Both the position numbers and the translations under genes were made by a program. Shown piece by piece: positions 20,861-60,971 of a stretch of DNA of 64,000 nucleotides. The notes below the pieces were generated by a model. That model was given only the letters and a program-made list of their open reading frames with translations. It made no database searches and was not told the origin of the DNA. The first letter of the stretch is position 1. The number at the start of each line of letters is the position of its first letter. The stretch comes from Colwellia demingiae (GTDB lineage: Bacteria > Pseudomonadota > Gammaproteobacteria > Enterobacterales > Alteromonadaceae), in contig NZ_VOLT01000004.1 in NCBI RefSeq assembly GCF_007954275.1, positions 62,001 to 126,000 of the forward strand. The letters are read 5' to 3'.

Positions 20861-20877
20861 AATTTAATTTCCTATAG

Positions 20878-23008: not shown

Positions 23009-23015
23009 TTTTCTC

Positions 23016-36785: not shown

Positions 36786-38637
36786 GCAAAAATGTACCCC
36801 TGTTAGATTTTCTCATTTAATGTCCTATTCAGGTGTTGGCTCTATAGCACGAGATAAAGATGATTTTTTAGTTACAGTAGTGGATACGCGCTATTGGACA
36901 GATGAACATGGATGTATTGCGGCAGAGAATATTCCCTATGTGGAAAGAGTAAAGTTAGCTTTGGGGCTTAGTCAGGACTTGAGAAAACCTCCAGAGGCTA
37001 AAGAATTAGAGAATGGAAAAATAGAAGGAACGTATATTCCAACGGTTCTCTTTCCTTCATTTTTCAGATGTAAAAAATGTCGAATGTTACATCAAAACCT
37101 TTGGAATAAGACCGATCAAAAGTCTGTAGAAAATGTAAAGTGTGAACATTGTAATTCAAGACTAGAGCAGTTGTCTTGGTGTGCAAGTAGCACCAAAGGT
37201 GAACTGGCCGAAGTGCCTTGGCATTATATTTGTCATCAAGAAAGTAACTTTAAATGTGAAGTTGATTATTCAAATAGTTACTTAAAATTAACAAATGTTG
37301 CAAACGGAAAATTGCAGATAGAATGCACTCGCTGTTTAAGCACAAATAGTGATGTTCGCAAGAGTAAACTGTCGAGATTAAATACTGTTCAACCTTGGAT
37401 TTATGAACAGGGTGAGCAGCTTACCCCACAAGATATCAGTATTTTGGAAGTGAATGATCCTAGGATTTATTCTCCATCATCCATGAACGCCTTAGTTATT
37501 CCTCCAGAGTCAAGAGTGGACAAATCTACGGTGATTAATCGACTTTTTAATAACTCAAAATTTCGTCATGCTTTTGATAACGCTCGAACTAGTTTGAAAA
37601 AGAAACGGGTATTAAAGCAAGCGTCCACGAAATATAGGTGTTCTGTTGAAGATATAAGTGCAGCGATGAGTCAAATAGAAGATGGGTATCCGTTTTTAAC
37701 TCATATTGAATCAGGTGATCTTTATAAAGATGAATATGATGCTTTCTTAACTGTTATGGATGATGTTAGTGATGAAGAAGATTTTGTCACCGAACATAAA
37801 ACCAAGGATTGGAAAGTCTTAGGTGAAACATTAACAGGTGAATTGTTAGCGATAAATAGCCTCATTGATAATTTGATCATTGTTAAAAGGTTACGAGAAA
37901 TTCAAGTGTTTAAAGGATTTTCTCGACTACCTAATCAAAGAGAAAATGCCAAGGCTGCAAATGGTTCTGAAAATGAAACGGATGAACAAGTTCTAACAGC
38001 ACCAGATATAGTTGGGGAAAGTGATTGGTTACCTGCAATTGAATTATTTGGAGAAGGGCTGTTTTTTACGTTAAATGAAAACTTACTTTCGAAGTGGGAA
38101 AGTATACCGAGTGTAAGAAAGCGAGCAAATGAAATTGAACATAGGTATGAAAACGCAGACATAATTTTTAACTTTGATTTAACAGTAACACCAAGGTTTT
38201 TGTTATTACATACGATTTCTCATCTATTAATTAGAGAATTAGAGTCTGTTGCTGGTTATCCTGCTGCTTCTCTTAAAGAAAGGATTTACCACAGTAAAGA
38301 CAATAAAATGGCTGGTATTTTAATTTATACAGCCGTTCCTGATATAGCAGGAACTTTAGGCGGCATTGTAGAAAATGGAGAACCTAGAGAGTTTTTGAAA
38401 TTGTTGTCAGGTACTTTTAAGCATGCACAGTGGTGTTCACACGATCCAGTTTGTACCGAACATTTAGGGCAAGGACCTAGTTGGCTTAATAGAGCTGCAT
38501 GTCATGCCTGCGCGTTATTGCCTGAAACAAGCTGTGAATTTGGTAATGTATTTTTGGATAGGGTCTTTATCAAAGGAAATGATGTTCTTGATATTCCCAA
38601 TATTATAAGTTTTATTAATGAGGTGTCTGATGAGTAA
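36778..38637 (+). CDS. DrmB-like DUF1998 protein
   Basis: 619-aa homologue of DISARM DrmB. The N-terminus PVRFSHLMSYSGVGSIARD matches the family opening. Several paired cysteines follow (CKKCRM, CEHCNS, CTRCLS). The C-terminal ~150 residues are DUF1998: HTISHLLIRELESVAGYPAA, GILIYTAVPDIAGTLGGI, and the Cys-rich end C-x4-C, C-x2-C (DPVCTEHLGQGP, CHACALLPETSC). DrmB partners DrmA in DNA binding. The start overlaps drmA by 8 bp (ATGCATAA), so the two are made at fixed ratio. Confidence 0.82.
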   Translation: MHKQKCTPVRFSHLMSYSGVGSIARDKDDFLVTVVDTRYWTDEHGCIAAENIPYVERVKLALGLSQDLRKPPEAKELENGKIEGTYIPTVLFPSFFRCKKCRMLHQNLWNKTDQKSVENVKCEHCNSRLEQLSWCASSTKGELAEVPWHYICHQESNFKCEVDYSNSYLKLTNVANGKLQIECTRCLSTNSDVRKSKLSRLNTVQPWIYEQGEQLTPQDISILEVNDPRIYSPSSMNALVIPPESRVDKSTVINRLFNNSKFRHAFDNARTSLKKKRVLKQASTKYRCSVEDISAAMSQIEDGYPFLTHIESGDLYKDEYDAFLTVMDDVSDEEDFVTEHKTKDWKVLGETLTGELLAINSLIDNLIIVKRLREIQVFKGFSRLPNQRENAKAANGSENETDEQVLTAPDIVGESDWLPAIELFGEGLFFTLNENLLSKWESIPSVRKRANEIEHRYENADIIFNFDLTVTPRFLLLHTISHLLIRELESVAGYPAASLKERIYHSKDNKMAGILIYTAVPDIAGTLGGIVENGEPREFLKLLSGTFKHAQWCSHDPVCTEHLGQGPSWLNRAACHACALLPETSCEFGNVFLDRVFIKGNDVLDIPNIISFINEVSDE

Positions 38638-39811
38638 AAGGAAATTTGACCTCCCTGGTATAGATGAACTCAATAAAGATCAAAAAGCAGTTCTTCGCCT
38701 TAAAGAATCGGGACAACATTTAGTGATTGGAGGCCCCGGAACAGGGAAATCAGTTGTAGCATTATTACGAGCTAGGAAGTTTCATCAAAAAGATAATTAT
38801 TTGTTCTTAACCTTTAATCATGTTTTAAACTCTTCAACGAAGCAAGTCTGTGGTATAGAATTAAAATCAGATACAGCACAAAGTTGGTTCTATTCACTTC
38901 AATTTAATTTGGCTCCAGGGAATGATTTTGAGTTAAAAAAAATGCCACATAGAACAGACTCAAACGGTATGGAAATTCAACATTCGCCTAATTACGATAA
39001 AGTAATAGAAAGATTTGATAGTTATGTAAATCAGAAAAATTCTAACTTACCTGCAAATGATACTCACTTTATTATTGATGAAGGACAAGATTTACCTATT
39101 GGTTTTTATGAGTCATTGCAGTCATTAGGTTTTGAAAACTTCTTTATTGTAGCTGATCAAAATCAACAAATAACAGAGGAAAACTCATCTAGACAAGAAT
39201 TAACCGATGTTTTGGCTCTAGAAAATGATGAGGTTGTTGAGCTTAATGAAAACTACCGAAATAGCTCAACTATTGCAAAATTTGCGAACCATTTTTATAC
39301 AGATAAAGCATCTCCTGCGCCTAATTTACCTGATCGACCATCATTAGATACACCTACTCTTTATGTTTATGAAATGCTTAATAGTTGTATATCAATGATT
39401 CACCGTGAAGCTATTAGAGATACTGAAAGATTAATTGGTGTTATTGTTGCTACAGAAGCTAAAAGGGATACTTATACAAAAATTTTAACTAAAGCTGTGA
39501 CTAATGAAAATATAAATGTTTCTTCGTATTCGAATGAATCCAAACAAAATGTAAATATTGATTTTTCAATGGGGGGAGTTGTCGTGTTGTGCGACAAATC
39601 CGTTAAAGGAATTGAATTTGATACTGTTTTTATTGTTCTTGATGATTTGAAAATTATTAATAATGATGCGGACGCAATTAAGAAACGCTTGTATGTAATG
39701 TCTTCTAGAGCTAAAGAAAAATTATTTTTATTCAGAAGTGCTGTAATGCCTAATGAAGTTGAAGGGTTATTGCCAATAGACGAAAACTTAATGATAAGAG
39801 ATAAAATTTAA
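38630..39811 (+). CDS. short SF1 (UvrD-like) helicase/ATPase
   Basis: About 393 aa from ATG 38630, chosen because it has GAGGTG upstream and overlaps drmB by 8 bp; an ATG at 38618 is less likely. Walker A is GGPGTGKS, motif II is FIIDEGQDLP, and motif III is VADQNQQI. ELNENYRNS follows, and motif V/VI is VKGIEFDTVF and YVMSSRAKEKL. All core motifs are present but the usual helicase inserts are missing, so it may act as a DNA-sensing ATPase. It is third in the DrmAB operon. Confidence 0.78.
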   Translation: MSKRKFDLPGIDELNKDQKAVLRLKESGQHLVIGGPGTGKSVVALLRARKFHQKDNYLFLTFNHVLNSSTKQVCGIELKSDTAQSWFYSLQFNLAPGNDFELKKMPHRTDSNGMEIQHSPNYDKVIERFDSYVNQKNSNLPANDTHFIIDEGQDLPIGFYESLQSLGFENFFIVADQNQQITEENSSRQELTDVLALENDEVVELNENYRNSSTIAKFANHFYTDKASPAPNLPDRPSLDTPTLYVYEMLNSCISMIHREAIRDTERLIGVIVATEAKRDTYTKILTKAVTNENINVSSYSNESKQNVNIDFSMGGVVVLCDKSVKGIEFDTVFIVLDDLKIINNDADAIKKRLYVMSSRAKEKLFLFRSAVMPNEVEGLLPIDENLMIRDKI

Positions 39812-39812
39812 T

Positions 39813-41324
39813 ATGGCGATTACAGCTAAAGCAACCTGGTTACTCCCGACTAATACTGAAAACTTACAGATGGTGCTTGCTCAAGGTTTAATTACCGATG
39901 CTAGTGGATTTTTGGGTAGTTACTACAAAGACGTTCTCAATGAATGCCCTGGATATATTTCACTGTTTAAGAGTGAGGTTCCTGGCTCGGCCCTTAAATT
40001 ATCTAAGAGTGAAGATGATGGTTTGATTAGCTGTATTATTAAGATAAATTTAAAAGATATAACCCTTGGTGATTGTATCCATACTAGGTGTGATATTGAC
40101 GATAGTTTTAACAGTGAAAATGTAAGTCCCAAAGAATCAAATAATGTTCCAATTCCTTCACTTCAAGGTAAAAAAACAGATGAGTTGGATTATGAAAGTA
40201 TATTAATTCAGGCTCCATTACCATTAACTTGTATAGAAGAAGTAATTTTTTCGTGCAAAGCTGATTTAGATGAATTCAAAGACTCGTCTTCAAATGTCGG
40301 TAACGTTTCAACTAAAATATTGAAGTGTAAGGTTGATAAGAAAGCGTTCCAAAACACCACAGCAGGTAGTCATTTATTTCATGATAGTTTCTCTAACCTT
40401 GGGCACAATCCAATTGAGTATAACAAGGCTTATTCGTTTGGTGGGTTAGCTTCACTTTCATTTTATTTTTCAAAAAATGGAGAAGAGTCGGCTAATTTAT
40501 TTAATTCTATTAGCAAATTTACAGAAGATGAAAGTCAGTCTTTAGAGTACAAATGGATTTACGAGTACTTTTTTTCAAACGAAAAAAGCAAGCTTGAAAA
40601 ATGGAATGCCATTCTTGAAATTTTGAATGATTATAAAAAAAGAAGTGACATTGAGTATAAAAATAAAATTATAGAGTTTTTAAATTCAACAGCAGACACT
40701 CAACCTATTGCTGAGTTTTTAACTGACTACCATCGTTCAAAAATAGAAAAGTCTGATACTCAAATTATTGATGAATACATAGAACAATATAAGAAAGAGC
40801 CAAAGGTATTCAAAATTCGGTTTTTCTTATTCATGTTGTTTTACAAAGACAGTATTGAAAAGCTTATAAAATATACACATGTTGGGTTTAGAGAAGAAGA
40901 CTATGTTTTATTAGGTATGTTATTTGGCATGAATAATAGCTTTATAGGCTTGCCAAAATGGTTAGTTGAATATGAGAATTTACATATTTATATTTCAACA
41001 CTTATGGCGAATTATGCTCATAAACAAGCCAATACAGGATTGCATTTTAAAGAACCACCTAAGCCATTATTGCTAACAGAAATGCTTTCGCCTAAAAAAC
41101 TTGGATTTATAGCGTGGTTTGGTAAGAATTTTGATGCGAACAATTGCTTTAAAACAGTAATGCCTAACAAGGTGTTTCAGTGTGATAAAGGGAAGAGTAC
41201 ATACGAAGGAATTGTTGTTCCTGAATGTCAGATTGTAAATATTCCGTTTTTTAAAACTATGTCGTCTGTTGTGTTAGACGATAAGGATTACAGCCGGATA
41301 TGTAAGGAATATAAGGGTAAGTAA
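39813..41324 (+). CDS. unknown 503-aa operon component
   Basis: No family recognised. It starts one base after the helicase stop and ends 4 nt before the NERD gene, so it is an integral member of this operon. The N-terminus (WLLPTNTENLQMVLAQGLIT) looks like a beta-rich domain. The middle (~200-330) is helical and charged, and the C-terminal part has conserved-looking aromatic segments (LGFIAWFGKNFDANNC). There are no nuclease or nucleotide motifs. It could be a recognition or scaffold subunit; that is speculation. Confidence 0.7.
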   Translation: MAITAKATWLLPTNTENLQMVLAQGLITDASGFLGSYYKDVLNECPGYISLFKSEVPGSALKLSKSEDDGLISCIIKINLKDITLGDCIHTRCDIDDSFNSENVSPKESNNVPIPSLQGKKTDELDYESILIQAPLPLTCIEEVIFSCKADLDEFKDSSSNVGNVSTKILKCKVDKKAFQNTTAGSHLFHDSFSNLGHNPIEYNKAYSFGGLASLSFYFSKNGEESANLFNSISKFTEDESQSLEYKWIYEYFFSNEKSKLEKWNAILEILNDYKKRSDIEYKNKIIEFLNSTADTQPIAEFLTDYHRSKIEKSDTQIIDEYIEQYKKEPKVFKIRFFLFMLFYKDSIEKLIKYTHVGFREEDYVLLGMLFGMNNSFIGLPKWLVEYENLHIYISTLMANYAHKQANTGLHFKEPPKPLLLTEMLSPKKLGFIAWFGKNFDANNCFKTVMPNKVFQCDKGKSTYEGIVVPECQIVNIPFFKTMSSVVLDDKDYSRICKEYKGK

Positions 41325-41328
41325 TCAG

Positions 41329-42915
41329 ATGGAAATAATCCCTAACTCCCCTTATGAAACTAACAGTAAAGCAGAGCTACGTGTCTTCAAAAAGCTCAAA
41401 GAAGCATATGTAAATGATTTTTCATATGCAGCCCTTCATTCACTCAATATAACAAACCATCAATTCAAAAAATTTGGTGAAGCAGATTTTGTTATTATTT
41501 CTAAATTTGGTGTTTTTGTCTTAGAAGTCAAAGGAGGGGGGATTGAATATGTTGATGGTCGGTGGTCAACTAGAAATAATCAAGGAAGTCATGTTATTCA
41601 AGATCCATTTAGACAAGCTGAAACAGCGATGCACGCCATTAAGGACGCTATTGTAAACTCTAATCAATTCCCACTCTCTTTAAATAAAAGCTTGCCCATT
41701 GGGTACGGTGTTATTTTTCCTGATACTGAATGGACACATAAAGGCTCTGAATGGGAACGGAAGATTATTTGTGACGGTAGAAATTTTCGTAATCTTGAAA
41801 ACTGGCTTAAAAACTTCTTTCATTACTGGCAGGGTAGACCTAGAAATAATACTTTGCTCTCAACAGACGATATTTCTAAATTAAAACAATTTTTGAGACC
41901 TAACTTTGAATTAGTTGAATCACTATATTCAAGACTTGAACGATCTGAAAGGTCAGTGGTTAAGCTAACAGAAGATCAATATAAGTATCTTGATATTGTT
42001 AGCGCTAATAAACAAGTCTTGTGTTCAGGTGGAGCTGGTACAGGAAAAACTTTTTTAGCAGCAGAGCTTGCTCGTAGATTTAGTAATGAAAATAGGTCGG
42101 TTGCAATTGTTTGTAAATCTAACTGGCTGCGAAGATATTTAGAGACCAGAATTGAAGATGAAAATGTGGTTATCTCCACTATTGAAAGCATTAAAGTAGA
42201 TAAAAAAAGAGCAGGTATAGATTCTTTCGATATTCTAATACTTGATGAGGGACAGGATTTTTTAAATTCTGAAGATATAGAGTTACTTGAAGATGTATTC
42301 GAAGGCGGCTTTGAGCATGGTGAGTGGTATATTTTTCATGATATAAATAATCAATCAGGTTTGTTCAGCCCAACTAAATACGAAGTATTAGCATACTTAG
42401 AGAGCTTTAAGCCTGCGAAAGTTCCTCTAACAACTAATTGCCGAAATACACTGAACATATTGTCATCAATTCAAATAAAACTTCAGGCCAATATGGGAAT
42501 TAAAGGTACAGGAATAGGGCCAGAAGTTGAAGAGTGTACTGTACATCATTCTGAATTATCATTAGCTTTAGAAAATAAAATCTCTGAATTACTAAGTAAA
42601 GGAGTAACGCCTGAGTCTATAACGATCTTATCTCCGCTTTCATACGAACGGTCGTCAATTTCATCTTTAACGAAAAAGTTACAAAATTCAATAATTAAAT
42701 TAGATGATTATTCTGTGAGAACTTTTCCTCCTAAAGGAATCAGCTTTGCTGAAATTAAAAACTTCAAAGGCTTAGAAAACGAAGTTATTATTGTTGTGGA
42801 TCTTATGAAACCAGAAGATTTAAAAGATAATGATAGTAAAACACTACATTATGTAGCGATGAGTAGAGCTAGAGGACTCTTGTCTCTCATATGGAATGAT
42901 AGTATTAGTCAGTAA
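41329..42915 (+). CDS. NERD nuclease fused to SF1 helicase
   Basis: 528 aa. An N-terminal NERD (nuclease-related) domain (~10-150) has the PD-(D/E)XK-like core: FGEADFVIISKFGVFVLEVK gives D, E and K. The helicase part has Walker A SGGAGTGKT near residue 240, motif II ILILDEGQDF, TTNCRNT, then FKGLENEVIIVVD and YVAMSRARG. It is predicted to unwind and cut DNA. It is the likely nuclease in place of DISARM's PLD protein DrmC. Confidence 0.82.
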   Translation: MEIIPNSPYETNSKAELRVFKKLKEAYVNDFSYAALHSLNITNHQFKKFGEADFVIISKFGVFVLEVKGGGIEYVDGRWSTRNNQGSHVIQDPFRQAETAMHAIKDAIVNSNQFPLSLNKSLPIGYGVIFPDTEWTHKGSEWERKIICDGRNFRNLENWLKNFFHYWQGRPRNNTLLSTDDISKLKQFLRPNFELVESLYSRLERSERSVVKLTEDQYKYLDIVSANKQVLCSGGAGTGKTFLAAELARRFSNENRSVAIVCKSNWLRRYLETRIEDENVVISTIESIKVDKKRAGIDSFDILILDEGQDFLNSEDIELLEDVFEGGFEHGEWYIFHDINNQSGLFSPTKYEVLAYLESFKPAKVPLTTNCRNTLNILSSIQIKLQANMGIKGTGIGPEVEECTVHHSELSLALENKISELLSKGVTPESITILSPLSYERSSISSLTKKLQNSIIKLDDYSVRTFPPKGISFAEIKNFKGLENEVIIVVDLMKPEDLKDNDSKTLHYVAMSRARGLLSLIWNDSISQ

Positions 42916-48647: not shown

Positions 48648-49595
48648 ATGAAAAATATAGAAAGAACAATTAATGAGACCTATACGCCTAGTGAGTTAGT
48701 CATTAACTGGCATATAACCGAAGCCTGTAATTATAACTGTACTTACTGTTTTGCTAAGTGGGGAAAACCTAATGAATTACATCGTTCATTAGAGGCCATT
48801 GAAAAGCTATTAGATAACTTAGCGGACTACTTCATTAAAGGAAACTCATCACTGAAGCAAAAGCTTGGCTATGAAAATGTTCGTCTTAATATTGCTGGCG
48901 GTGAGCCAATGATGTTGGGCAGTACTTTTTCAATTGTTTTGATGTTAGCGAAACAAAAAGGTTTTAAAACGTCAATTATCACTAACGGCCACTATCTGCT
49001 AAATAGTAAATTCGACCTTCCTAATAATGTATTGGATATGGTTGGGATTAGTTTTGATAGTCAACGTTATGATGTTAGGTGTGAGATAGGAAGAGTAGAT
49101 AGAAAAGGGAACTCATTAAGCTCTGATGATTTGAAATTTGCATTAAAAAAGTTATCAAGTACACAAAAAGGCATAAAAACTAAGATTAACACTGTTGTTA
49201 ATAAGCTTAACTGGCAGGAGAATTTCTCTAGTTTAATTTCAGAAATAAAGCCTTATAAATGGAAAATATTACATGTCATGCCATATGGAGAAGATGAGCT
49301 TCTTATTTCCAAGGAACAATTTAACTACTTCGTGAATATGCATAGTAACGCAGGATTACCTATTTTTGCTGAATCTAATTCTGCCATGACGGAGTCTTAC
49401 TTAATGATTGACCCTAAAGGGCGCTTTTATCAGAACTCATCAAGTGGCCCTGGTTATAAATATAGTGAATGTATAAATGATATAGGGGCCGAAGTAGCAT
49501 TAAAACAAATTAACTTTAACCATGCAGTTTTCATAGCTCGTTATTTTCCGATTGAATCAATAGCAATATTGGAAAATAAAGTGGTAGCTTCATGA
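48648..49595 (+). CDS. prokaryotic viperin (antiviral radical SAM enzyme)
   Basis: 315-aa radical SAM enzyme of the prokaryotic viperin family. The cluster motif C27-x3-C31-x2-C34 lies in NWHITEACNYNCTYCFAKW, and the SAM-binding GGE is in NIAGGEP. The length and the NWH lead-in to the cysteines are characteristic of pVips rather than of general radical SAM enzymes. Viperins convert nucleoside triphosphates to chain-terminating ddh-nucleotides that stop viral RNA synthesis; which nucleotide is used here cannot be told. No nucleotide-kinase partner is adjacent. GGAAAGAAACG precedes the ATG. Confidence 0.88.
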   Translation: MKNIERTINETYTPSELVINWHITEACNYNCTYCFAKWGKPNELHRSLEAIEKLLDNLADYFIKGNSSLKQKLGYENVRLNIAGGEPMMLGSTFSIVLMLAKQKGFKTSIITNGHYLLNSKFDLPNNVLDMVGISFDSQRYDVRCEIGRVDRKGNSLSSDDLKFALKKLSSTQKGIKTKINTVVNKLNWQENFSSLISEIKPYKWKILHVMPYGEDELLISKEQFNYFVNMHSNAGLPIFAESNSAMTESYLMIDPKGRFYQNSSSGPGYKYSECINDIGAEVALKQINFNHAVFIARYFPIESIAILENKVVAS

Positions 49596-51731: not shown

Positions 51732-52097
51732 ATGGATAGCGTTATTGTTTTTTTCTCAACTCCTGAAGGAGTTGCACTTTGTAGTCTCGTTACTATTGCC
51801 AGTTTGATTTTTGGATTTTTACAAAAATCTAAAGTCATAAAAATATCAAATAAAATCGACTCTAAAAATAATATTATTACAATATTAGAAGCTAAAAATA
51901 TTAAACTCACTCAAGATATTACATCGACTTCCGATTCTAATAATGAGTTAAAACTTATTAACTCTAGATTAACTGCAACAGTAAATAATTTAGAAAAGGG
52001 TGATTTAAGCCAAAATGAACAGTCAGTTAACCAACACGGTAAAAATAACATTAATAATGGAAATATTAGTGGTGATTTTAACCTTGAGTTATCTTGA
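51732..52097 (+). CDS. ABC-3C system: membrane-anchored small component
   Basis: 121 aa from ATG 51732, which has AAAAGGAA before it; a TTG at 51681 is less likely. One membrane helix (VALCSLVTIASLIFGFL, ~14-30) is followed by a coiled coil (~45-90) and an Asn/Gly-rich tail (NQHGKNNINNGNISGDF). This kind of tail is common in small proteins of ABC three-component loci. It overlaps the next gene by 4 bp. It is likely the membrane effector or an anchor. Confidence 0.6.
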   Translation: MDSVIVFFSTPEGVALCSLVTIASLIFGFLQKSKVIKISNKIDSKNNIITILEAKNIKLTQDITSTSDSNNELKLINSRLTATVNNLEKGDLSQNEQSVNQHGKNNINNGNISGDFNLELS

Positions 52098-52660
52098 GCA
52101 AATGTATGATTAAAAATCTAGTAAATGTTGGGACAGTTGGAAGGGATATTATTCTTACTGAATCAGCAGAACAGAAAGTTGATTCGGTAGTGAATTCTTT
52201 GCTTACAGAAATTTCATTAACTCCCATTAAAATTGATTTTAGAAAAAGAAGTGTGCCAGCAGATGTTGTTATTAAGGTCGATTATAATAATTTACAGTCT
52301 CAACGCTTTATTTTAAGTCAATATCAAGCATATTCAGCCTCCATTGAAACCTCTTACGAAAGTATTGATAAAAACATTATAAATGGGAAAGCAAAAGTTT
52401 TTATGATGTTAGATGATCTATATTTCAAAGCGTTATCTGATATAGGGCTTGATCCTGTTTTTGGTGATGTGGACATTGAGCTTATACGTGAACATGCTGA
52501 TAATATAATAGTAAAGATAATAAAAGGACTTAAAGACTTCTGCTACAAGTCTTCTAATACACCGAGCGATAAAGAATCTGTTGAAATTGGTGTTAATGTG
52601 ATTGTCGCACACGCATTTGTTGAGTGTCGAATCTTGGAGAATCCGAATGCTACCCTATAA
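52094..52660 (+). CDS. ABC-3C system: C-terminal-domain protein
   Basis: 188 aa. TTG at 52094 overlaps the upstream stop; ATG 52106 is an alternative. Its features agree with the CTD component of ABC three-component systems (SQYQAYSASIETSYESIDKN, then a helical C-terminus AHAFVECRILENP), but with no fused nuclease or other effector. The effector is therefore probably the membrane protein upstream. The gene overlaps the middle component by 14 bp. Confidence 0.6.
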   Translation: MSKCMIKNLVNVGTVGRDIILTESAEQKVDSVVNSLLTEISLTPIKIDFRKRSVPADVVIKVDYNNLQSQRFILSQYQAYSASIETSYESIDKNIINGKAKVFMMLDDLYFKALSDIGLDPVFGDVDIELIREHADNIIVKIIKGLKDFCYKSSNTPSDKESVEIGVNVIVAHAFVECRILENPNATL

Positions 52661-52877
52661 TGGCTGTCATCCCGAAATTAATGTGTTGTTCATTGGAGGC
52701 TACATATTAAAAACGCTTGAACAACAGCAAAGTATCAATATCGAGTTATTATTCAAAAAGGGAAGTAATGAGTTAAAAGTATCAACCGATCATTTGATAC
52801 TTGCTCTTGACTGGTTATACGTTATTTCAGCTATTAACTATAAAAAGAATGAGATTACACTTAATGAAGTTAAATAA
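52647..52877 (+). CDS. ABC-3C system: middle component
   Basis: 76 aa from ATG 52647 with TTGGAGAA upstream. The pattern INVLFIGGYILKTLEQQ then STDHLILALDWLYVISAINY is that of ABC-3C middle components, small helical proteins linking the CTD protein and the ATPase. Overlaps both neighbours by 14 bp. Confidence 0.65.
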   Translation: MLPYNGCHPEINVLFIGGYILKTLEQQQSINIELLFKKGSNELKVSTDHLILALDWLYVISAINYKKNEITLNEVK

Positions 52878-54558
52878 TTTTTTACTTGAAATTGATGGTA
52901 AAACAATTCGTGATATTAAATTTGAAGATAACCTTAATATCATAATTAATGATAAAAATTTATCTATGTCAGGAAATAGTGTTGGGAAATCCACTCTTGG
53001 TCGTGTACTAGATTACCTTTTTAATGGTTCAATCAAAGATATATATGTTGATCGAGATAATGATTCAACGAATAAGGAAATTGAAAACCTATTTAATAAA
53101 CAGAAGGTGTACGCTTCACTAACTTATAGTGGTTTAGATGGTTTACCTAGTACGATTAAAAGACAGTTAAGCATTGAAAAAAACTCCAAAAATTACTTTA
53201 TCAATGGAGTACCAAAATCATCGAAAGAATACATTTCACATATAATGAAGACCATTTTTAATATTGTTTCAAATAAACCTACTATTCGCAAAGTAGCTCC
53301 TAAATTTTTTAGGACAAACCAGTATCGTATGTTGCATAACACTAAACTACTTGATGAATATAGTAAAAGTAGTAAAAGTGATTTTAGTATAGTTATGTTG
53401 TATCTATTTGGTTTTGAAAAAACCTCATTATTAACAGAAAAGCATGAGTTGAATCTAAAAATAAAAAAGTACGAGAAACAAACGCAAGTGCTTGGTTCAA
53501 TAATAAAAGATGATAAAATTAAAGGTGCAATTACTGAAATTAAAAGAAAGATAGCAATACTTGAAAAAGAAGTCTTATCGACAGATAAAGGCGTTGATAA
53601 ACTTGTACTTGTGTCTGAAATTAATGAAATTGATGATAAAGAGAATAAGCATATTGATTCACTCATAAACCTTGATGTTAAAATCAAAAATGTGCAGCGT
53701 ACAAATAAAATTTTAAACAATGATGATAGAACTTATCTCGTGTCTGAATTACAACGTATATATGAATACGCCTCCGTCAGTATTGATTCAGTAATACGTG
53801 ATTATGATGATTCATTAGAATTTCATAAGCAATTAATCGAAACAAAAAAAGAATTTCTATCTTCGGGATTACCAGCTTTAGAGAAGATAAAGAGGGAAAC
53901 TGAACTAGAAGTGCAACAATTGCGAAGTAATAAAAGTTCTCTCTACTCACAAATTAGCTCAAAACAAAATATAAATGAACTATCTGCAACAGTTAAAGAA
54001 ATTGGTGTTTTGACTAAAGAACTTATCAATAATACAGCGATAATTGATAAACAAGAAGCTACTGATTTAAACCTTGGACAGACTACTGATTTATTAATAG
54101 AACTGTTAGTCAAACTAGCTAGCCAATTAAAATGTGTAAATGATTTTGAGTCAAAATTTATTGAGAACTTTAAGATATACACAAATGAATTTTATGGTGT
54201 GGAGTACAATTTCAGTCTCAATTTAGATGATGAAAAAGGTGAATGTGATCCTAGCGTAGACGAAACGGAATCAAACAATGAAGGGGGGTTAAAACGTTTA
54301 GAAATCATTTCTTTTGATTTGGCTTACATTAAAACTATTAGTGATATGGAAGCAAATAGACCTTCCTTTGTTGTTCACGACTCTATAGATGATATAGACA
54401 ATGAGCTAATCGTGAAAATGTTTGAAATATCTCAAAGCCTATCAGGTCAGCAAATAGTGTCGGTATTAGCAGATAAACTATCTGCTGAACAATATAAAAA
54501 ATACAAACCATTTATGATTCTAGAACTTAGCCAAAGTAATAAATTTTTTAAAATTTAA
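52864..54558 (+). CDS. ABC-3C system: DUF2326 SMC-like ATPase
   Basis: 564 aa from ATG 52864, chosen because the extra upstream residues are not family-like. It begins with a beta hairpin and Walker A (SGNSVGKSTLGRVLDYLF, ~residues 38-55), has long coiled-coil arms (~195-420), and ends with the DUF2326 C-terminal part: GLKRLEIISFDLAYIKT and Walker B-like PSFVVHDSIDD. It is the DNA- or damage-sensing ATPase of the system. It completes a four-gene set with overlapping ends. Confidence 0.82.
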   Translation: MKLNNFLLEIDGKTIRDIKFEDNLNIIINDKNLSMSGNSVGKSTLGRVLDYLFNGSIKDIYVDRDNDSTNKEIENLFNKQKVYASLTYSGLDGLPSTIKRQLSIEKNSKNYFINGVPKSSKEYISHIMKTIFNIVSNKPTIRKVAPKFFRTNQYRMLHNTKLLDEYSKSSKSDFSIVMLYLFGFEKTSLLTEKHELNLKIKKYEKQTQVLGSIIKDDKIKGAITEIKRKIAILEKEVLSTDKGVDKLVLVSEINEIDDKENKHIDSLINLDVKIKNVQRTNKILNNDDRTYLVSELQRIYEYASVSIDSVIRDYDDSLEFHKQLIETKKEFLSSGLPALEKIKRETELEVQQLRSNKSSLYSQISSKQNINELSATVKEIGVLTKELINNTAIIDKQEATDLNLGQTTDLLIELLVKLASQLKCVNDFESKFIENFKIYTNEFYGVEYNFSLNLDDEKGECDPSVDETESNNEGGLKRLEIISFDLAYIKTISDMEANRPSFVVHDSIDDIDNELIVKMFEISQSLSGQQIVSVLADKLSAEQYKKYKPFMILELSQSNKFFKI

Positions 54559-54716: not shown

Positions 54717-55253
54717 ATGAGTCTTGTTTATAGTCAAAAGTGTGTAATGAAGTTTAAGTCCGATTCTCGTGAAGAAATTAATGTGAGTATTACTGATTCA
54801 AGTTTTGTTGAGCAATCAGCTATTGATACTATTATGAAAAGGGTGGATACACTGGATTTTGTTCCACACGGTTATAAGTTACAAAAAGAACATAATTGGA
54901 GTGAAAGTAAGATAAATTATACAATTAATTTGTATAAAGAGTGGTTAGTTCTTCAAGTGCTGTACGAAGATCTATCATTTGCTCCTAGTGAGTTAGTTGA
55001 TGAGTTTTGGCATATTCATATTTTGGATACTCGCAAATATATGAATGATTGTAATTCAATAAAAGGTGAATTCATCCATCATTACCCCTATTTTGGTTTA
55101 ACAGATCAAGAGAATGAAACTGTTCTTGAATCAGGCTTTCAATTAACTAAAAAGCTTTATTTATATCATTTTGGGCATTGCGAACTTGGTTTTAAAGGTG
55201 AAATGTCTGCTTCATGTGGCTGTCGTTCAGGCAATGGCGGTAGTTGTCGTTAA
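54717..55253 (+). CDS. DUF1399/GRDP-like protein with Cys/Gly tail
   Basis: 178 aa. The central part (~75-155) matches the glycine-rich-domain-protein-like family: LVDEFWHIHILDTRKYMNDC, HHYPYFGLTDQENE, then KKLYLYHFG. The tail is short and unusual: SASCGCRSGNGGSCR with three Cys in 12 residues. It heads the five-gene cluster and its stop touches the next start (TAATG). It could be a substrate protein or peptide precursor carrying a modifiable tail, or a metal-binding protein. ATG 54717 follows AAAGGAATAT. Confidence 0.65.
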   Translation: MSLVYSQKCVMKFKSDSREEINVSITDSSFVEQSAIDTIMKRVDTLDFVPHGYKLQKEHNWSESKINYTINLYKEWLVLQVLYEDLSFAPSELVDEFWHIHILDTRKYMNDCNSIKGEFIHHYPYFGLTDQENETVLESGFQLTKKLYLYHFGHCELGFKGEMSASCGCRSGNGGSCR

Positions 55254-56083
55254 TGACAATTTTAAAATTATCAAAATTGTTTCAAGATAATCAACAAATT
55301 AACTTGAAGCAATTAGACACGAAAGATGAATATAGAGATTATATTAAAAACAATAAAAGTTTTACAAATCTAATTAGCTCTATCAAGACTATATTGAAAG
55401 AAGATAAATATATTATTGTAAGAGGGTTAGTAAGTGATTCAGATAAATTTTTTGAGGTCTTTGTTGAAGAGTTTGGACTTTTTTATGGGGCTGTAGAAAA
55501 AACAGGAATTAAAATTGACTGTGATTACACTGGCTGTAATCGAAAAGCCCTTGGCTTGCATAATGATGATGCCATTGATATTAAGAACCAACCAAAGTTT
55601 GGTTTTATACAAGTAACCAATCCCGATCCTGTCCTCCATGTAATGAACGGAATTGTTATAATCAGTGAATTAGTAAACAAACTTAAGTATGAAAATCCAG
55701 ACTTGTTAAAGTCGCTTCTTAATAACCCAGTCCCAATGCTTTCATATGGCGTTAATTATGTTGATAAGAATAATGACGAAATTGTAATTAACGAGCCTGT
55801 TCTATATAAAAAAAATAATGAATACCACGTTCGATTTGATGATAGTCGAATTGGACATTTTTATTACAAAAATAAATTAGCTCAAAGCTCTAATGAACTT
55901 GACATGATAGAGAAATTTATCAAAGTGTCTCATAGTATAAAACATGAGTTTCATCTAGAGTGTGGTGATATTCTGATTCATGATAATTTAACTACTTTAC
56001 ATGACCGTAGTGAGTGTTCTATCGAAATTAATTTTGATGGAAGTTTTAACACACGGGAAATCAGGGCATGTTTTGCTAGGTAA
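55253..56083 (+). CDS. TauD/TfdA-like Fe(II)/2-oxoglutarate oxygenase
   Basis: 276 aa from ATG 55253. The iron triad is visible: H103-x-D105 (LGLHNDDAID) and H250 (DNLTTLHDRSE). The 2-oxoglutarate-binding Arg is R268 or R271 (TREIRACFAR). The family hydroxylates or otherwise oxidises small molecules or amino-acid side chains. In this operon it may modify the product of the preceding gene or a metabolite. Substrate unknown. Confidence 0.78.
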   Translation: MTILKLSKLFQDNQQINLKQLDTKDEYRDYIKNNKSFTNLISSIKTILKEDKYIIVRGLVSDSDKFFEVFVEEFGLFYGAVEKTGIKIDCDYTGCNRKALGLHNDDAIDIKNQPKFGFIQVTNPDPVLHVMNGIVIISELVNKLKYENPDLLKSLLNNPVPMLSYGVNYVDKNNDEIVINEPVLYKKNNEYHVRFDDSRIGHFYYKNKLAQSSNELDMIEKFIKVSHSIKHEFHLECGDILIHDNLTTLHDRSECSIEINFDGSFNTREIRACFAR

Positions 56084-56085
56084 TT

Positions 56086-56754
56086 ATGAAAGTATATGAT
56101 GTTGATAGACAAATACAAAATGAAAGTAATTTTCCATTTTGGTTTTCCATACTAAAAGAAGCAGATGAAGTATTAGACATCAGTAAAGTGAAGTCTGTTA
56201 TGGATTTTGGTTGTGGGAATGGAATGTTTAGTCAATTAGTTAATTGTAAATATCCCCATTTGAATATCTATGGGGTGGAAATAGACCCTAGTTTGGTAGA
56301 ATTTTGTAACCAGAATAACCAAATTTCAACTATTAATTTCATACATTATAATGAGATGACATTAATAAAAAAAATAGATGTCGTCTTTTCTCAAGAAGTT
56401 GTTTATACGCAAAAATCAATTAATATGCATGCTAAAGAAATATTCAACGTGTTGAATGACGGAGGATATTATATTTTCACTATAGGGTGCCATATAGACA
56501 ATCCAACTTGGCCGAAAAGAAGAGATAAGATAAGGGCGAGTGAAAAATATTTCGCTTTTGATTATTCATTAAAAGATATTGCAGATGCTTTTTTTAATGT
56601 AGGTTTTAGAGTGACTATTAAAAGATTACCTCTTCATGTGCCAATAAAATATGTTCCAAATGATAATGGTGAATTCGATAATATAGTTGATATGCTAAAT
56701 TCATGCGAAGAACAAAAAACTTTATTTGTAATGTTAAAACCAAAATATAAATAG
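56086..56754 (+). CDS. class I SAM-dependent methyltransferase
   Basis: 222 aa. The SAM-binding motif I is VMDFGCGNGMFSQL (~38-51), with the acidic post-I end GVEIDPSLVEF and motif IV region DVVFSQEVV. It resembles small-molecule methyltransferases. It begins 2 nt after the oxygenase gene and ends 7 nt before the UvrA-like gene. Target unknown. Confidence 0.82.
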   Translation: MKVYDVDRQIQNESNFPFWFSILKEADEVLDISKVKSVMDFGCGNGMFSQLVNCKYPHLNIYGVEIDPSLVEFCNQNNQISTINFIHYNEMTLIKKIDVVFSQEVVYTQKSINMHAKEIFNVLNDGGYYIFTIGCHIDNPTWPKRRDKIRASEKYFAFDYSLKDIADAFFNVGFRVTIKRLPLHVPIKYVPNDNGEFDNIVDMLNSCEEQKTLFVMLKPKYK

Positions 56755-56761
56755 AGATATT

Positions 56762-59700
56762 ATGGCTAATAAAGATAACGACATTATTATATTGGGAGCA
56801 ACAGAAAATAATTTAAAAAATATAAATGTTCGAATTCCATTAAATAAAATAACTTGTATTACAGGGAAAAGTGGTTCAGGTAAATCCTCTTTAGTTGATG
56901 GAATTATTTCTAGGGAAGCTACTCGATTAAAAAAAATAACTAGTGGCATTGCTTCCGAGTATGATCTTTTAGTGAGACCAAGTTTTAAAGATATTCATAA
57001 TTTACCCAATTGTATTTCGGTCAAACAAGAATGTGTCATTAGAACTGAAAGTTCTAATGTAGCTACTTACTCTGGTTTAAATAATTATTTTAGAAAACTT
57101 TTCGTTGATAAAGGTCATATCATTTGTGCTTGTGGTGAAGAAGTTGATAACACCGTTTCAAGTAATCAAGTCGAGTCGATAGTTTATAAATTATTAGATG
57201 ACAGGGTTTATGATTTTTACTCTTTAATTATCAAAAATAAAAAAATTGAAATTGATAAAATTAAAAAATTTGCCATTTTACATAATGTAGAGTATTTCCA
57301 AGTAGATGGAAAAAATAAAAAAATAGATTTAAAATCTCTTGGTAAGTTAGACAAATTCAAAAATTTCACAGTCAAAGCTTATATTGGTTCTGTTGATAAA
57401 ACGAACCTATCAATGCTAAACCTCTATAAGTTCCCTATAAATACTATAGAAGTTTATAACTCTGCATCTTGTGTCCTTAACTTTTCATATCAGACCTTTT
57501 GTAGTGCTTGTTACCTAGAGTACCAAACTAAATCTATTTCCTTATTTACACGTAAGAACTTAAGTAAATTGTCGGGGTGTTGTCTCTATTGTGCAGGGAA
57601 AGGAGTGGGGAAATCATTCAACTTGGAAACATTAATCAATAAACGTGTATCAGTTGTTGATTTTAGTTTTTTAAATATACCTCATAACGGTAAATCATAT
57701 AAATATATAAATTTACAAAATACATATATTAAAAAATTCATTGTTGCTAATTCTATTGATAACGAAGTTGAATTTGAATTTTTATCTGAGAATAATAAAA
57801 TTCAATTTTTAGATTTTTTAAGTGAAAAATTAATAAAGTATATTGACCATCCAAAAGTTCAAGAATTTGTTATAGAGAACGAATGTAAAAAATGTAATGG
57901 TAGTGGATTTAATAGAAAAGCTACATCAGTATTCTATAGAAATACCAATATTTCCCAGCTTCTCAAGCTAACAATAATAGAAGCATTATCTTTTTTTAAT
58001 AATTATGGTATTGATTTAACAATAAAAGCATTACATAAGCTTTCTTTAGGTCATTTAAGTTTAGATCGAAAAACGACTACTTTAAGTGGTGGTGAATTAC
58101 AAAGATTAAAGTTAGTTGATGTATTAGCGAGAGAAGCTGATTCGTATTTGTTGATTATAGATGAACCCTCTATTGGGCTGCATAGGGATGATTTACAGAG
58201 TCTTCTGAAGGTATTTAAAGGCATTGTAAAAGAACAAAACACTTTGTTAATAATTGATCATAGCCCCTATGTTATAAGTCAATCTGATAATATTATTGAA
58301 ATTGGCCCCAGTTCTGGTGCTAAAGGTGGATATATTGTAAGTGGTGATAATAATAATGATCTTTTGGAAAAAATTGATTTGTGTAGGAATAAAGATAATG
58401 AGAACACCATATCTTTTGATAATATAAATTATAATAATATTATTGAACAGAGCATTACTTTACCTCTAAATAGGCTTACATGTTTAGTTGGTGTTTCGGG
58501 GAGTGGGAAGTCATCTTTAGCTTCATACATTAGCAAAAAAGGTAATGAAAGTTTCAATGAAGTAATAACATTGAACCAATTTGGAGTTAGTAAAAATAAG
58601 AGATCCACAATAGCCACCTATATTGGGCTATCGGATGAATTGAGGGAGCTTTATGCGCTCACTACCAAAGCAAAGCTTTTAGACTTATCTAAAAGTGAAT
58701 TTACTCCAAACAGTGCATTAGGGGCATGTGAAGTTTGTAATGGTGATGGAAAGCTCAATGACGTTGTTTGTTCTGGGTGCGATGGGAAAAAATTAAATCC
58801 TTACATTTTATCAATTCTGCTTGATGGTTTAAATATTTATGAGTTAAATAATATACCGATTAATGAATTAAAAGAGTTTGCACCTACAGTTTTTTCGAGT
58901 GTGAAAATTTGCCAATCCATTCAAATTCTTAATGACTTGGGGTTAAGTCATTTAACTTTTGGGACTGGAATACCAAATATTAGTGGTGGTGAAGCTCAAA
59001 GAATAAAATTGGCAAAGTACCTATTGGGAAATAGTCATTCTATTTTGAATGATGAACAGCATAATTTATTTATTTTAGATGAGCCGAGTCAAGGGTTAAA
59101 TCCTGAAGATTCGTTTAATGTTTTTAAAATAATAGATAATATATTAAGTTCGAACAATACAGTTTTAATAATAGAGCACAATGATGTATTAATAAAAAAT
59201 TCTGATTACATCATAGAACTAGGACCTAAAGCTGGAAATCTTGGTGGGGTTGTAAGCTTCTGTGGATCAACGAATGACTTTTTTCAACAAAATGAAAATC
59301 CAGATGAAAGCCTAGATGAAAGCCTAGATGAAGTCATTGATTCGGACGAGTTATATGCTTCTGCGGTGTTAAATAACACTGTTGACACATCATACTTTAC
59401 ACAATTAGATGAGTATTATTCTAAATTCAAAGTTATAAGTCCTGATGTTAATGTACTTAATTTTGATTTTAAAGTTGATTCTTATAATTACTATAAAGGT
59501 AATCACCCCAATAACGATTTGTTTTTTAACCCTTTTTGTTTTCAGTTTCAAAAATCTTCACTTGTATCATATGATGATATACAGAATGTTTTTTATCAGC
59601 TAAAAAAGTTTGGGATAACACATGTCGAGGTCGATGGTTTAAATATAGAAGTAGATAAGGCTCAATTTCATGTAGATAATACAAATTGTTGGAATGTAAT

Positions 59701-60340
59701 AGTTAAGTCACATACTTTTGAACAAGCGTTTGAGTTGGGGAATGGTTGGATAATTTTAAAAACACCATTAAATTTATTGCACTTAACAACTTCTTTATTA
59801 TCTATTGAGAATAAAGTAGTTGGTGTAAGGAAGATAACCAAGCAAAGCTTTAATTTATATTATAACAAATGTTCAACTTGTAATGGAAAGGGAAATATTA
59901 ATTTTTCAGATCTGCTTATAAGAAGCTCTAAAGAAAATGTTTTAGATGTTGCCTTCTATCACGAATTATTTGCTAAAGTAGTACAAGAAAAATTACTAAA
60001 AAAGTTAAAATTAATATTCTTAACTTTTAAGGAACAAAAATTATTCAACTTTAACAAACCTTTTGACCAATTCACAAGCTTAGAACTTAGTATTTTTCAT
60101 TACGGTTTACCTAGCCATAAGTTCTTGAAAAAAAATGGACGGAAATCAGCTAAAAGCGATTTTATTCAGTGGACTGGTATGACTGACTTTCTTATTAATA
60201 ATATGAAACATTTTACAAATGACATGAAAAAATCGTTTGAAAAGTCCTTACAAATTAAAAATTGTCCTGCTTGTTTAGGAAATAAATATAGTAATGAATT
60301 TAATTACTATTTAACTGAATTACATAATGATAAGTGCTGA
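56762..60340 (+). CDS. UvrA-like ABC ATPase, extended (1192 aa)
   Basis: Two ABC modules of UvrA type. Walker A 1 is GKSGSGKS (35-42) with signature LSGGELQ (441-447). Walker A 2 is GVSGSGKS (577-584) with ISGGEAQ (740-746). D-loops are IIDEPSIGLHRD and ILDEPSQGLNPE. Zinc modules lie in the first half (CSACYLEY, CLYCAGKG, CKKCNGSG) and second half (CEVCNGDG, CSGCDGKK). Housekeeping UvrA is ~940 aa. Here ~320 extra residues follow an Asp/Glu/Ser repeat linker and carry a third zinc module (C1037/C1040, C1168/C1171) without an ATPase. UvrA-like paralogues can give self-protection against DNA-binding compounds (DrrC), but some act in defence. Confidence 0.88.
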   Translation: MANKDNDIIILGATENNLKNINVRIPLNKITCITGKSGSGKSSLVDGIISREATRLKKITSGIASEYDLLVRPSFKDIHNLPNCISVKQECVIRTESSNVATYSGLNNYFRKLFVDKGHIICACGEEVDNTVSSNQVESIVYKLLDDRVYDFYSLIIKNKKIEIDKIKKFAILHNVEYFQVDGKNKKIDLKSLGKLDKFKNFTVKAYIGSVDKTNLSMLNLYKFPINTIEVYNSASCVLNFSYQTFCSACYLEYQTKSISLFTRKNLSKLSGCCLYCAGKGVGKSFNLETLINKRVSVVDFSFLNIPHNGKSYKYINLQNTYIKKFIVANSIDNEVEFEFLSENNKIQFLDFLSEKLIKYIDHPKVQEFVIENECKKCNGSGFNRKATSVFYRNTNISQLLKLTIIEALSFFNNYGIDLTIKALHKLSLGHLSLDRKTTTLSGGELQRLKLVDVLAREADSYLLIIDEPSIGLHRDDLQSLLKVFKGIVKEQNTLLIIDHSPYVISQSDNIIEIGPSSGAKGGYIVSGDNNNDLLEKIDLCRNKDNENTISFDNINYNNIIEQSITLPLNRLTCLVGVSGSGKSSLASYISKKGNESFNEVITLNQFGVSKNKRSTIATYIGLSDELRELYALTTKAKLLDLSKSEFTPNSALGACEVCNGDGKLNDVVCSGCDGKKLNPYILSILLDGLNIYELNNIPINELKEFAPTVFSSVKICQSIQILNDLGLSHLTFGTGIPNISGGEAQRIKLAKYLLGNSHSILNDEQHNLFILDEPSQGLNPEDSFNVFKIIDNILSSNNTVLIIEHNDVLIKNSDYIIELGPKAGNLGGVVSFCGSTNDFFQQNENPDESLDESLDEVIDSDELYASAVLNNTVDTSYFTQLDEYYSKFKVISPDVNVLNFDFKVDSYNYYKGNHPNNDLFFNPFCFQFQKSSLVSYDDIQNVFYQLKKFGITHVEVDGLNIEVDKAQFHVDNTNCWNVIVKSHTFEQAFELGNGWIILKTPLNLLHLTTSLLSIENKVVGVRKITKQSFNLYYNKCSTCNGKGNINFSDLLIRSSKENVLDVAFYHELFAKVVQEKLLKKLKLIFLTFKEQKLFNFNKPFDQFTSLELSIFHYGLPSHKFLKKNGRKSAKSDFIQWTGMTDFLINNMKHFTNDMKKSFEKSLQIKNCPACLGNKYSNEFNYYLTELHNDKC

Positions 60341-60971
60341 ATTAATTATGAGTGATAATTGTGAGTTTGACTTTTCAGATGTTGATTGTGATTTTCAAAC
60401 TAAATTTGCAAAGTTTTATAAAGTCCATAATAACGATGGAAATACATCAATTATCAAGGTTTTTAAAAAAGAGTATTGTGATTTTTTTTCTGAACATAAA
60501 TATAACCTATTAAAAAATATACGTTCAGAACTAATGATTTCTATTTTGAGTATAAATAACAAAATAAATAACCAGTATGTTGAATATGAGTATTTTGAAT
60601 CAATGACTTTAAAAGAGTGGCTCCATTCAGATTGCATTATAACGAAATCTTTATTGATTAATGTTATTAAGGATATGGCTGAGATTATTGATAAGTTTCA
60701 TCAAAACGATTTAGTTCATTTGGATATAGTAGGAAACTTTCTTATTAATACTGATGGTAAAATAAAACTTAATGACTATGATTATGTTGAGGAATTAGGT
60801 GGTTCAAAGAAAGGTAGAGTTGATTTACATTCATTTTTTGAACTTGTATATCGAATGATCCTTTTCGTTCATAAGAAAAAATCAACAAGAACAATAAATA
60901 TTAAATTTAATGATACGAATATTGATCACTCCTCATGTAAGAAATTTATAAGTAGTTTAGATCTTCAATAA
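60327..60971 (+). CDS. small kinase-like protein
   Basis: 214 aa from ATG 60327, overlapping the UvrA-like gene by 14 bp; ATG 60348 is an alternative. It has an ATP-lysine candidate K44 (SIIKVFK), a hinge-like MTLKEWL, the catalytic loop HLDIVGN (131-137) and DYD (150-152) instead of DFG. The glycine loop is not evident, and the activation segment is short. It looks like a minimal or degenerate member of the protein/LPS/aminoglycoside kinase fold. Last gene of the five-gene cluster. Confidence 0.6.
   Translation: MISAELIMSDNCEFDFSDVDCDFQTKFAKFYKVHNNDGNTSIIKVFKKEYCDFFSEHKYNLLKNIRSELMISILSINNKINNQYVEYEYFESMTLKEWLHSDCIITKSLLINVIKDMAEIIDKFHQNDLVHLDIVGNFLINTDGKIKLNDYDYVEELGGSKKGRVDLHSFFELVYRMILFVHKKKSTRTINIKFNDTNIDHSSCKKFISSLDLQ

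What the first reader, a model, noticed from the sequence alone, without database searches (positions are those of the whole stretch)
54717..60971. Five-gene cluster: Cys/Gly-tailed protein, dioxygenase, methyltransferase, UvrA-like ATPase, kinase-like protein
Seen: five plus-strand genes with 1-bp, 2-nt, 7-nt and overlapping junctions, so they are one unit. The set joins two tailoring-type enzymes (TauD-like, methyltransferase), a UvrA-like ATPase of the kind that protects producers of DNA-binding compounds, and a first gene with a short Cys/Gly tail. Inference: either a small biosynthetic system with self-immunity (possibly peptide-derived, the tail being the modified part) or a defence system that uses DNA sensing by the UvrA-like protein. 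I know of no named system with this composition.
Basis: partly seen in the sequence, partly recalled or inferred. Interest (0 to 1): 0.85.

Follow-up and report, generated by a model that had tools for sequence, protein, structure and literature searches.

The report
Cysteine-tailed protein cluster with UvrA-like ATPase
A conserved set of bacterial genes looks built to chemically modify the cysteine-containing tail of a small protein, probably making a bioactive peptide, together with a DNA-repair-like ATPase that may protect the maker; the window's copy sits among virus-defence genes.

Summary
The five genes are real and tightly packed. Four of them (A tailed protein, B TauD-like dioxygenase, C methyltransferase, D UvrA-like ATPase) are a conserved unit: same order in 7 of the 80 related loci kept from a genome scan (class I), reordered in 9 more plus an Azospirillum plasmid (class II), and in one further variant, L183. 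Kinase E is not fixed.

A is a folded helical body without a PDB match plus a disordered tail, ASCGCRSGNGGSCR. In seven class-I copies 13 of 14 tail residues are invariant although every codon varies, and A is the most conserved of the four proteins. Relatives have other Cys tails, tandem-repeat tails, or a separate small peptide. Class I/II tails have B, C and D nearby in 16 of 16 loci, other tails in 0 of 64; shared ancestry contributes.

D has two Walker A sites and an extra copy of UvrA's peripheral module. Several copies lie among defence genes.

Best reading: a RiPP-like pathway with A's tail as core and D as DNA protection. No chemistry or activity is shown.

The parts
54717..55253 (+). 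Gene A: 178-aa protein, helical body with conserved WHxHILDT and HHYPYFG motifs, C-terminal Cys/Gly tail
   Evidence: AlphaFold mean pLDDT 89.6; family alignment of 65; 7 class-I relatives in the scan
55209..55250 (+). Tail of A, residues 165-178 (ASCGCRSGNGGSCR), the proposed core peptide
   Evidence: 13 of 14 positions invariant in seven class-I sequences, each with 2-4 different codons; residues 168-177 pLDDT under 50
55253..56083 (+). Gene B: TauD/TfdA-like 2-oxoglutarate/Fe(II) dioxygenase; HxD (LHNDDA) and distal His (TLHDR) invariant in class I
   Evidence: Pfam PF02668 E 2.9e-7; class-I consensus; the role of the motif is recalled, from no call
56086..56754 (+). Gene C: class I SAM-dependent methyltransferase
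   Evidence: Pfam PF13847 E 2.7e-12
56762..60340 (+). Gene D: UvrA-like ATPase, 1192 aa, two ABC ATPase domains
   Evidence: PDB relatives are UvrA proteins; two Walker A motifs
59417..60337 (+). C-terminal extra module of D (about residues 886-1192), a further copy of UvrA's UvrB-binding/zinc/insertion region
   Evidence: hhalign against UvrA N-half: probability 98.0, E 2.8e-13 (class I) and 98.3, E 1.9e-14 (class II); control second half 52.7 and 28.1
60327..60971 (+). Gene E: small protein-kinase-fold protein; accessory
   Evidence: Pfam PF00069 E 2.4e-10; same place only in L062

Best explanation
A RiPP-like biosynthetic unit. A is the precursor: its conserved helical body is the recognition scaffold (or a self-acting enzyme) and its Cys-containing C-terminal tail is the core. 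B (dioxygenase) and C (methyltransferase) modify the tail. A protease outside the cluster would release the product. D, a UvrA-like ATPase with an extra DNA-facing module, protects the maker's DNA from the product or clears the product from DNA. A kinase, where present, is an auxiliary step. Shown by computation: the conserved gene set, tail conservation at the protein level, predicted disorder of the tail, tail-neighbour coupling, D's domain make-up, and location of several copies among defence genes. Inferred: that the tail is the substrate, the order of steps, release, D as immunity, and any antibacterial or antiphage effect.
For: A-B-C-D in the same order in the window and 7 scan loci; class II with a second gene order, 9 scan loci plus L049; independent variant L183 with a different tail. 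In seven class-I copies 13 of 14 tail residues are invariant while each codon varies. A is the best conserved protein in 20 of 21 pairs and ties with B in one after rounding. The tail is disordered on a well-folded body. Class I/II tails: B, C and D within 9 kb in 16 of 16; other tails 0 of 64. Relatives with tandem Cys repeats and two with a separate 42- or 44-aa peptide ending GGGHCQGGG[SG]W beside a tailless A. UvrA-like genes mark clusters for DNA-binding products (PMC10413001, passages). L183 has a pentapeptide-repeat gene between C and D.
Against: No product, modification or activity is known. Classes I and II are each monophyletic in the A-body tree, so 16 of 16 is not 16 independent events. 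No protease or exporter recurs beside class I or II in the clusters I could name. Class IV tails sit beside a CHASE-GGDEF-EAL gene and class III beside four genes; of these, three from L055 and one from L083 were put to Pfam and gave no hit; neither set looks like RiPP enzymes. D retains the region of UvrA's UvrB-binding domain, unlike DrrC and Ecm16 as described in PMC10413001. D varies far more between copies than A.
Confidence: 0.55

Rival explanations
1. A direct protein-based antiphage system. D senses foreign or damaged DNA and drives A, B and C, which act on nucleic acid or on a host protein; the tail is a metal- or thiol-based working part, not a product.
For: The window copy lies beside ABC-3C, pVip and DrmA/DrmB genes in a stretch with Tn7-like transposase genes. 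Traced PADLOC hits near class II: BREX (L098), pVip (L104), SIR2 (L074), type III MTase (L077), PDC-M48B (L089), DNA cytosine MTase (L049). Control: 74 neighbours of 7 class-IV loci matched 8 PADLOC families, against 133 for 102 neighbours of 16 class I/II loci.
Against: No match of the set to a PADLOC system beyond generic ABC, methyltransferase and kinase similarity. A dioxygenase plus one or two methyltransferases fit product tailoring better. I traced no defence gene beside the class-I copies other than the window. The control is small, comes from other hosts, and family counts are not protein counts.
Confidence: 0.2
2. A small-molecule cluster in which A is a carrier or metal-handling helper: its tail binds a metal or holds an intermediate, and B and C act on a separate small molecule.
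For: Conserved His and Cys in A's body could bind metal. Some class-II loci add further tailoring-type genes (CmcI-like methyltransferase, weak second TauD, adenosine-deaminase-like protein).
Against: No scaffold-building enzyme (NRPS, PKS, terpene) was seen beside class I or II among the neighbours listed or put to Pfam; not every neighbour was tested. Strict tail invariance within a class, tandem-repeat tails and split peptides fit a core peptide better.
Confidence: 0.18
3. An ordinary chance grouping of unrelated accessory genes in a variable island.
For: The set is sporadic: a close A in 2 of 246 genomes of the family, the window included; E varies.
Against: A-D stay together across distant hosts and two gene orders.
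Confidence: 0.03

Closest known systems
Borosins (RiPPs with the core fused to, or split from, the modifying enzyme)
   Same: Fused and split layouts: a large folded N-terminal part carrying a C-terminal core, or a separate precursor (PMC8429565, passages).
   Different: A is not a methyltransferase by any Pfam or NCBIfam hit; modifiers here are a TauD-like protein and a separate methyltransferase; whether A's body is an enzyme is unknown.
Clusters with UvrA-like self-resistance proteins (DrrC, Ecm16, MtrX)
   Same: A UvrA-like ATPase coded among tailoring genes (PMC10413001, passages).
   Different: Those proteins lack the UvrB-binding domain; D keeps that region and adds a third peripheral module. 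The products named there are not ribosomal peptides.
Canonical UvrA (TIGR00630)
   Same: Two ABC ATPase domains and zinc/insertion modules.
   Different: 460 bits against a cutoff of 730; extra C-terminal module; the genome has a separate UvrA on another contig.
Microcin B17 with its immunity protein McbG (recalled, from no call)
   Same: Gly/Cys-rich core and a pentapeptide-repeat protein, as in L183.
   Different: I saw no YcaO or other azole-forming enzyme among the class-I/II genes I examined; pentapeptide repeats are common; only one variant has one.
GRDP-like / DUF1399 (PF07173)
   Same: Weak similarity of one homologue; annotation of a Halomonas homologue.
   Different: Below the Pfam cutoff. 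Of the 13 papers listed for these names most are on plants, to judge from titles and abstract starts.

Membership tests
RiPP biosynthetic cluster | Gene-encoded precursor with a variable core | tested here: inconclusive
   Tail families, repeats and split peptides fit; the tail as substrate is not shown
RiPP biosynthetic cluster | Post-translational modification of the core by the cluster's enzymes | not testable with these tools
   Needs mass spectrometry
RiPP biosynthetic cluster | Candidate modifying enzymes coded beside the precursor | tested here: met
   B and C beside A in 16 of 16 class I/II scan loci
Borosin | N-methyltransferase domain fused to, or acting on, the core | tested here: not met
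   No methyltransferase hit in A; C is separate and its target unknown
UvrA-like self-resistance protein (DrrC/Ecm16 type) | UvrA-like ATPase lacking the UvrB-binding domain | tested here: not met
   Region present in D by profile alignment to UvrA (uvn vs cIn, probability 99.2); feature taken from PMC10413001
UvrA-like self-resistance protein (DrrC/Ecm16 type) | Confers resistance to the cluster's product | not testable with these tools
   Needs an assay
Canonical UvrA (TIGR00630) | Score above the curated cutoff | tested here: not met
   460.4 against 729.8 bits
TauD/TfdA dioxygenase (PF02668) | Pfam gathering score | tested here: met
   31.1 against 27 bits
TauD/TfdA dioxygenase (PF02668) | HxD...H iron-binding triad | tested here: met
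   LHNDDA and TLHDR invariant in seven class-I copies; role of the motif recalled
GRDP-like (PF07173) | Pfam gathering score | tested here: not met
   No hit for window A at E up to 1; 14.9 against 22.7 bits for L074 A
Named antiphage system in PADLOC 2.0 (for example MADS) | Full set of system genes | tested here: not met
   Only generic similarity: D to mad3 (1.6e-48) and mad8, C to mad2 (1e-12), E to PD-T4-6 (2.8e-11) and mad6; none for A or B

The most novel reading that the evidence does not exclude
A new class of ribosomal-peptide system built on a helical domain of unknown fold that carries its own interchangeable Cys core (single, tandem or split), made inside the cell as a chemical weapon against phage or competitor DNA, with a three-module UvrA-like ATPase as the antidote, and spread as cargo of defence islands.
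Probability: 0.25. Interest if true: 0.95.

Novelty: new variant of a known kind. Interest (0 to 1): 0.8.

Why it matters
If right, it opens a large family of unstudied peptide precursors: 471 stretches matching one A motif encode relatives in a collection of one genome for each of 84,980 species. It would link peptide natural products, a UvrA-like ATPase and bacterial defence islands. It also makes a direct test possible: the mass of A's tail with and without B and C.

Tried and rejected
Rejected: chance grouping; D as canonical UvrA; MADS or another PADLOC system; plain GRDP/DUF1399 membership; E as a core part.

Led nowhere: viral contigs with B and with the two-row A alignment (no relatives); with the A family, 8 distant loci, seven of which have Cys-rich tails in my read-out. 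Plasmids: no match for B, D only under 60% identity, A only distant, which led to Azospirillum; one distant hit in phages. Foldseek and VIA-align on the A model: best E 0.46 and best Z 3.6, no family listed as a match, which does not prove a new fold. PDB search with D's C-terminal part: one hit, E 1.3. Transposon ends between 17.7-18.2, 23.7-24.4 and 60.95-61.7 kb: no clear pair. Class-I tail DNA pattern in 369 genomes: 5 matches, one the window; of the other four I fetched one (L166), which has no hit to A-E; the matched letters of the other three encode a different peptide; the reversed control also gave 5. This gave no new member.

Literature (open-access library): useless, matched 'ripple'; 0 papers. 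Of most papers I saw only the search listing. I saw found passages of PMC8649781 (no hit for UvrA, dioxygenase or RiPP), PMC10413001 and PMC8429565. Absence from this library is not absence from print.

Limits of the counts: the scan kept the best 80 of 471. L066 and L067 have identical A and 1158 of 1187 identical D residues; L067 was left out of the identity and codon counts and of the trees. Tail classes come from my own text patterns. For the A alignment A6, 15 of the 80 scan loci were left out by choice, for near-identity, masked letters or a stop. One UvrA paralogue (Streptantibioticus) was read in a wrong frame and dropped from the second D tree. One search scanned 102 neighbours of 180 aa or more from 16 loci (L062 and the window left out) and shows 25 of 133 families; its QatC hit was not traced to a locus. 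The control, used 74 neighbours from 7 class-IV loci, in GC-rich genomes where some called ORFs are doubtful. Of the 10 genomes other than the window's own found I read regions of 6, one of which (L180) appears to repeat L093.
Full report
What is there. B is TauD/TfdA, C a class I methyltransferase, D UvrA-like but below the UvrA cutoff, E a protein-kinase fold; A has no significant hit.

Conserved unit, class I. Among 246 genomes of the family, the window's genome and one other (G044) have a close A (28 have some match at E up to 1e-3, most distant). In G044 A is 75%, B 50%, C 47% and D 33-36% identical, in the same order. A scan of one genome per species kept the best 80 of 471 relatives. 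Seven carry the class-I tail and all seven have A-B-C-D in order: Methyloprofundus (L062), Alteromonas (L063), Pseudomonas anguilliseptica (L064), Vibrio (L065), P. alliivorans and Pseudomonas sp. ANT_J12 (L066, L067, near-identical) and Acinetobacter (L068). E is in place only in the window and L062 (59% identical). In L063-L067 a gene of one protein cluster follows D, on the same strand in L063 and on the opposite strand in L064-L067; the two put to Pfam, from L031 and L067, are AAA_33 P-loop kinases. In L068 an E-like kinase lies upstream on the other strand.

Class II. Nine scan loci and an Azospirillum plasmid have A with a tail ending C-x-[PS]-Q-[NR]-C-P, then a methyltransferase, a TauD protein, a UvrA-like protein of about 1400 aa and a second methyltransferase. 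Some add a CmcI-like methyltransferase (Pfam tested in L076), a weak second TauD-like gene (L077 and L098, both below the cutoff), and an adenosine-deaminase-like protein (Pfam in L077 and L115; PADLOC RdrB similarity in L077, L082 and L115). By record title the hosts are alpha-, beta- and gammaproteobacterial, acidobacterial, vicinamibacterial and myxobacterial.

Independent sample. A profile search of 398 genomes of the phylum found A relatives at E up to 1e-15 in 11, the window's genome included. Of six regions read, L183 has B (44%), C (38%) and D (32.5%) with a new tail ending CAATRCR and a pentapeptide-repeat protein between C and D; the other five gave no B, C or D hit at E up to 1e-6. 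L183's A groups with class I (support 0.989).

The tail. In seven class-I copies 13 of the last 14 residues are invariant and the fourteenth is G or S, while every position uses 2 to 4 codons, so the peptide itself is under selection. A is the most conserved of the four proteins in 20 of 21 pairs and ties with B in one after rounding. The model has mean pLDDT 89.6; residues 168-177 fall under 50. By my text patterns the 80 loci hold 7 class I, 9 class II, 15 class III (HACH..S.CACR type), 28 with two or more aromatic- or Met-Cys motifs, many of them tandem repeats (AAAWCSLEAGKP in Variovorax, AYCARMAK in Cupriavidus), and 21 others. B, C and D all lie within 9 kb of A in 16 of 16 class I/II loci and 0 of 64 others; a D-like hit alone occurs in 1 of 64, L072 (Fisher p 3.7e-17). 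This overstates the evidence: class I and class II are each one clade in the body tree, so independent events are few. In Halomonas and Pseudomonas savastanoi plasmids a tailless A lies beside a 42- or 44-aa peptide ending GGGHCQGGG[SG]W and a 442-aa gene; the Halomonas one has a weak MatE hit, below the cutoff.

D. All 17 D proteins examined (7 class I, 10 class II) have two Walker A motifs. The window has canonical signature motifs at both sites; in most class-II proteins the first is LSEGE-, ISEGE- or LSDGE-like. Beyond the second ATPase domain come two CxxCxG motifs 117-139 residues apart (131 in the window; 16 of 17 proteins, the second was not found in L079), close to the 129-131 of the first zinc pair in the four UvrA references. 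Profile comparison aligns the region to UvrA's N-half UvrB-binding/zinc/insertion region (98.0 and 98.3% probability), against 52.7 and 28.1 for the control. The genome has a separate UvrA on another contig. In an unrooted tree class-I D and the UvrA relatives each group together (support 1.0 and 0.98) apart from the class-II proteins; whether class I and II D are sisters is open.

Surroundings. Upstream lie ABC-3C, pVip, DrmA/DrmB-like, helicase and CHAT genes and TnsA-, TniB/TnsC- and TniQ-like genes, with a weak integrase-core hit for the TnsB position. Downstream are mraZ- and mraW-like genes (read, recalled). Near class II: BREX, pVip, SIR2, type III MTase, PDC-M48B and DNA cytosine MTase, one locus each. 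A control of 74 neighbours of seven class-IV loci matched 8 PADLOC families (a phospholipase effector, PycC and LmuA types), against 133 families for 102 class I/II neighbours. The control is small and from other hosts. I traced no defence gene beside the class-I copies other than the window.

How it probably works. A's body presents the tail; B oxidises and C methylates it; the released product acts on DNA or a DNA process; D, using ATP, shields or clears DNA. Only the gene set, the tail's conservation and predicted disorder, and D's make-up are shown; chemistry and activity are inferred.

Comparison. Closest in logic are borosins, which exist fused and split (PMC8429565, passages), and clusters with UvrA-like self-resistance (PMC10413001, passages). 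It meets the membership tests of neither. I file it as a new variant of a known kind and keep a categorically new reading open at 0.25.

Noticed in passing
window 18172-23705 (-): Tn7-like transposase genes: TnsA-like, a weak integrase-core hit at the TnsB position, TniB/TnsC-like and TniQ/TnsD-like; ends of the element not found.
   Followed up: partly
window 48648-49595: Prokaryotic viperin, PADLOC pVip E 1.6e-110.
   Followed up: yes
window 33426-42915: DrmA- and DrmB-like genes followed by helicase-type genes; whether a complete DISARM is present was not checked.
   Followed up: partly
window 52094-54558: ABC-three-component set: CTD10, MC6 and an ATPase matching PDC-M68B.
   Followed up: partly
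L051, L054, L071, L073, L086, L087, L095, L105, L106, L110, L117, L133, L136: A relatives, mostly with tandem Cys-repeat tails, beside a large protein of one cluster (C3); the member put to Pfam (L051) is CHASE-GAF-GGDEF-EAL.
   Followed up: partly
L055, L058, L069, L070, L072, L081, L083, L084, L120: Class-III tails beside four small genes (clusters C4-C7, each found in 9 loci; C7 holds L059 in place of L058); members of three of them, tested from L055 and L083, had no Pfam hit.
   Followed up: no
L050 5842-5970; L052 5769-5903: Separate 42- and 44-aa peptides ending GGGHCQGGG[SG]W beside a tailless A; the L052 peptide occurs in 8 Pseudomonas plasmid records.
   Followed up: partly
L142-L148: Distant A relatives on viral contigs with Cys-rich, mostly Gly- or Ser-rich tails.
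   Followed up: no
L061 9153-10340: A TauD-like gene directly before an A relative with a Cys/His tail; no B-E homologue seen beside it by BLAST.
   Followed up: no
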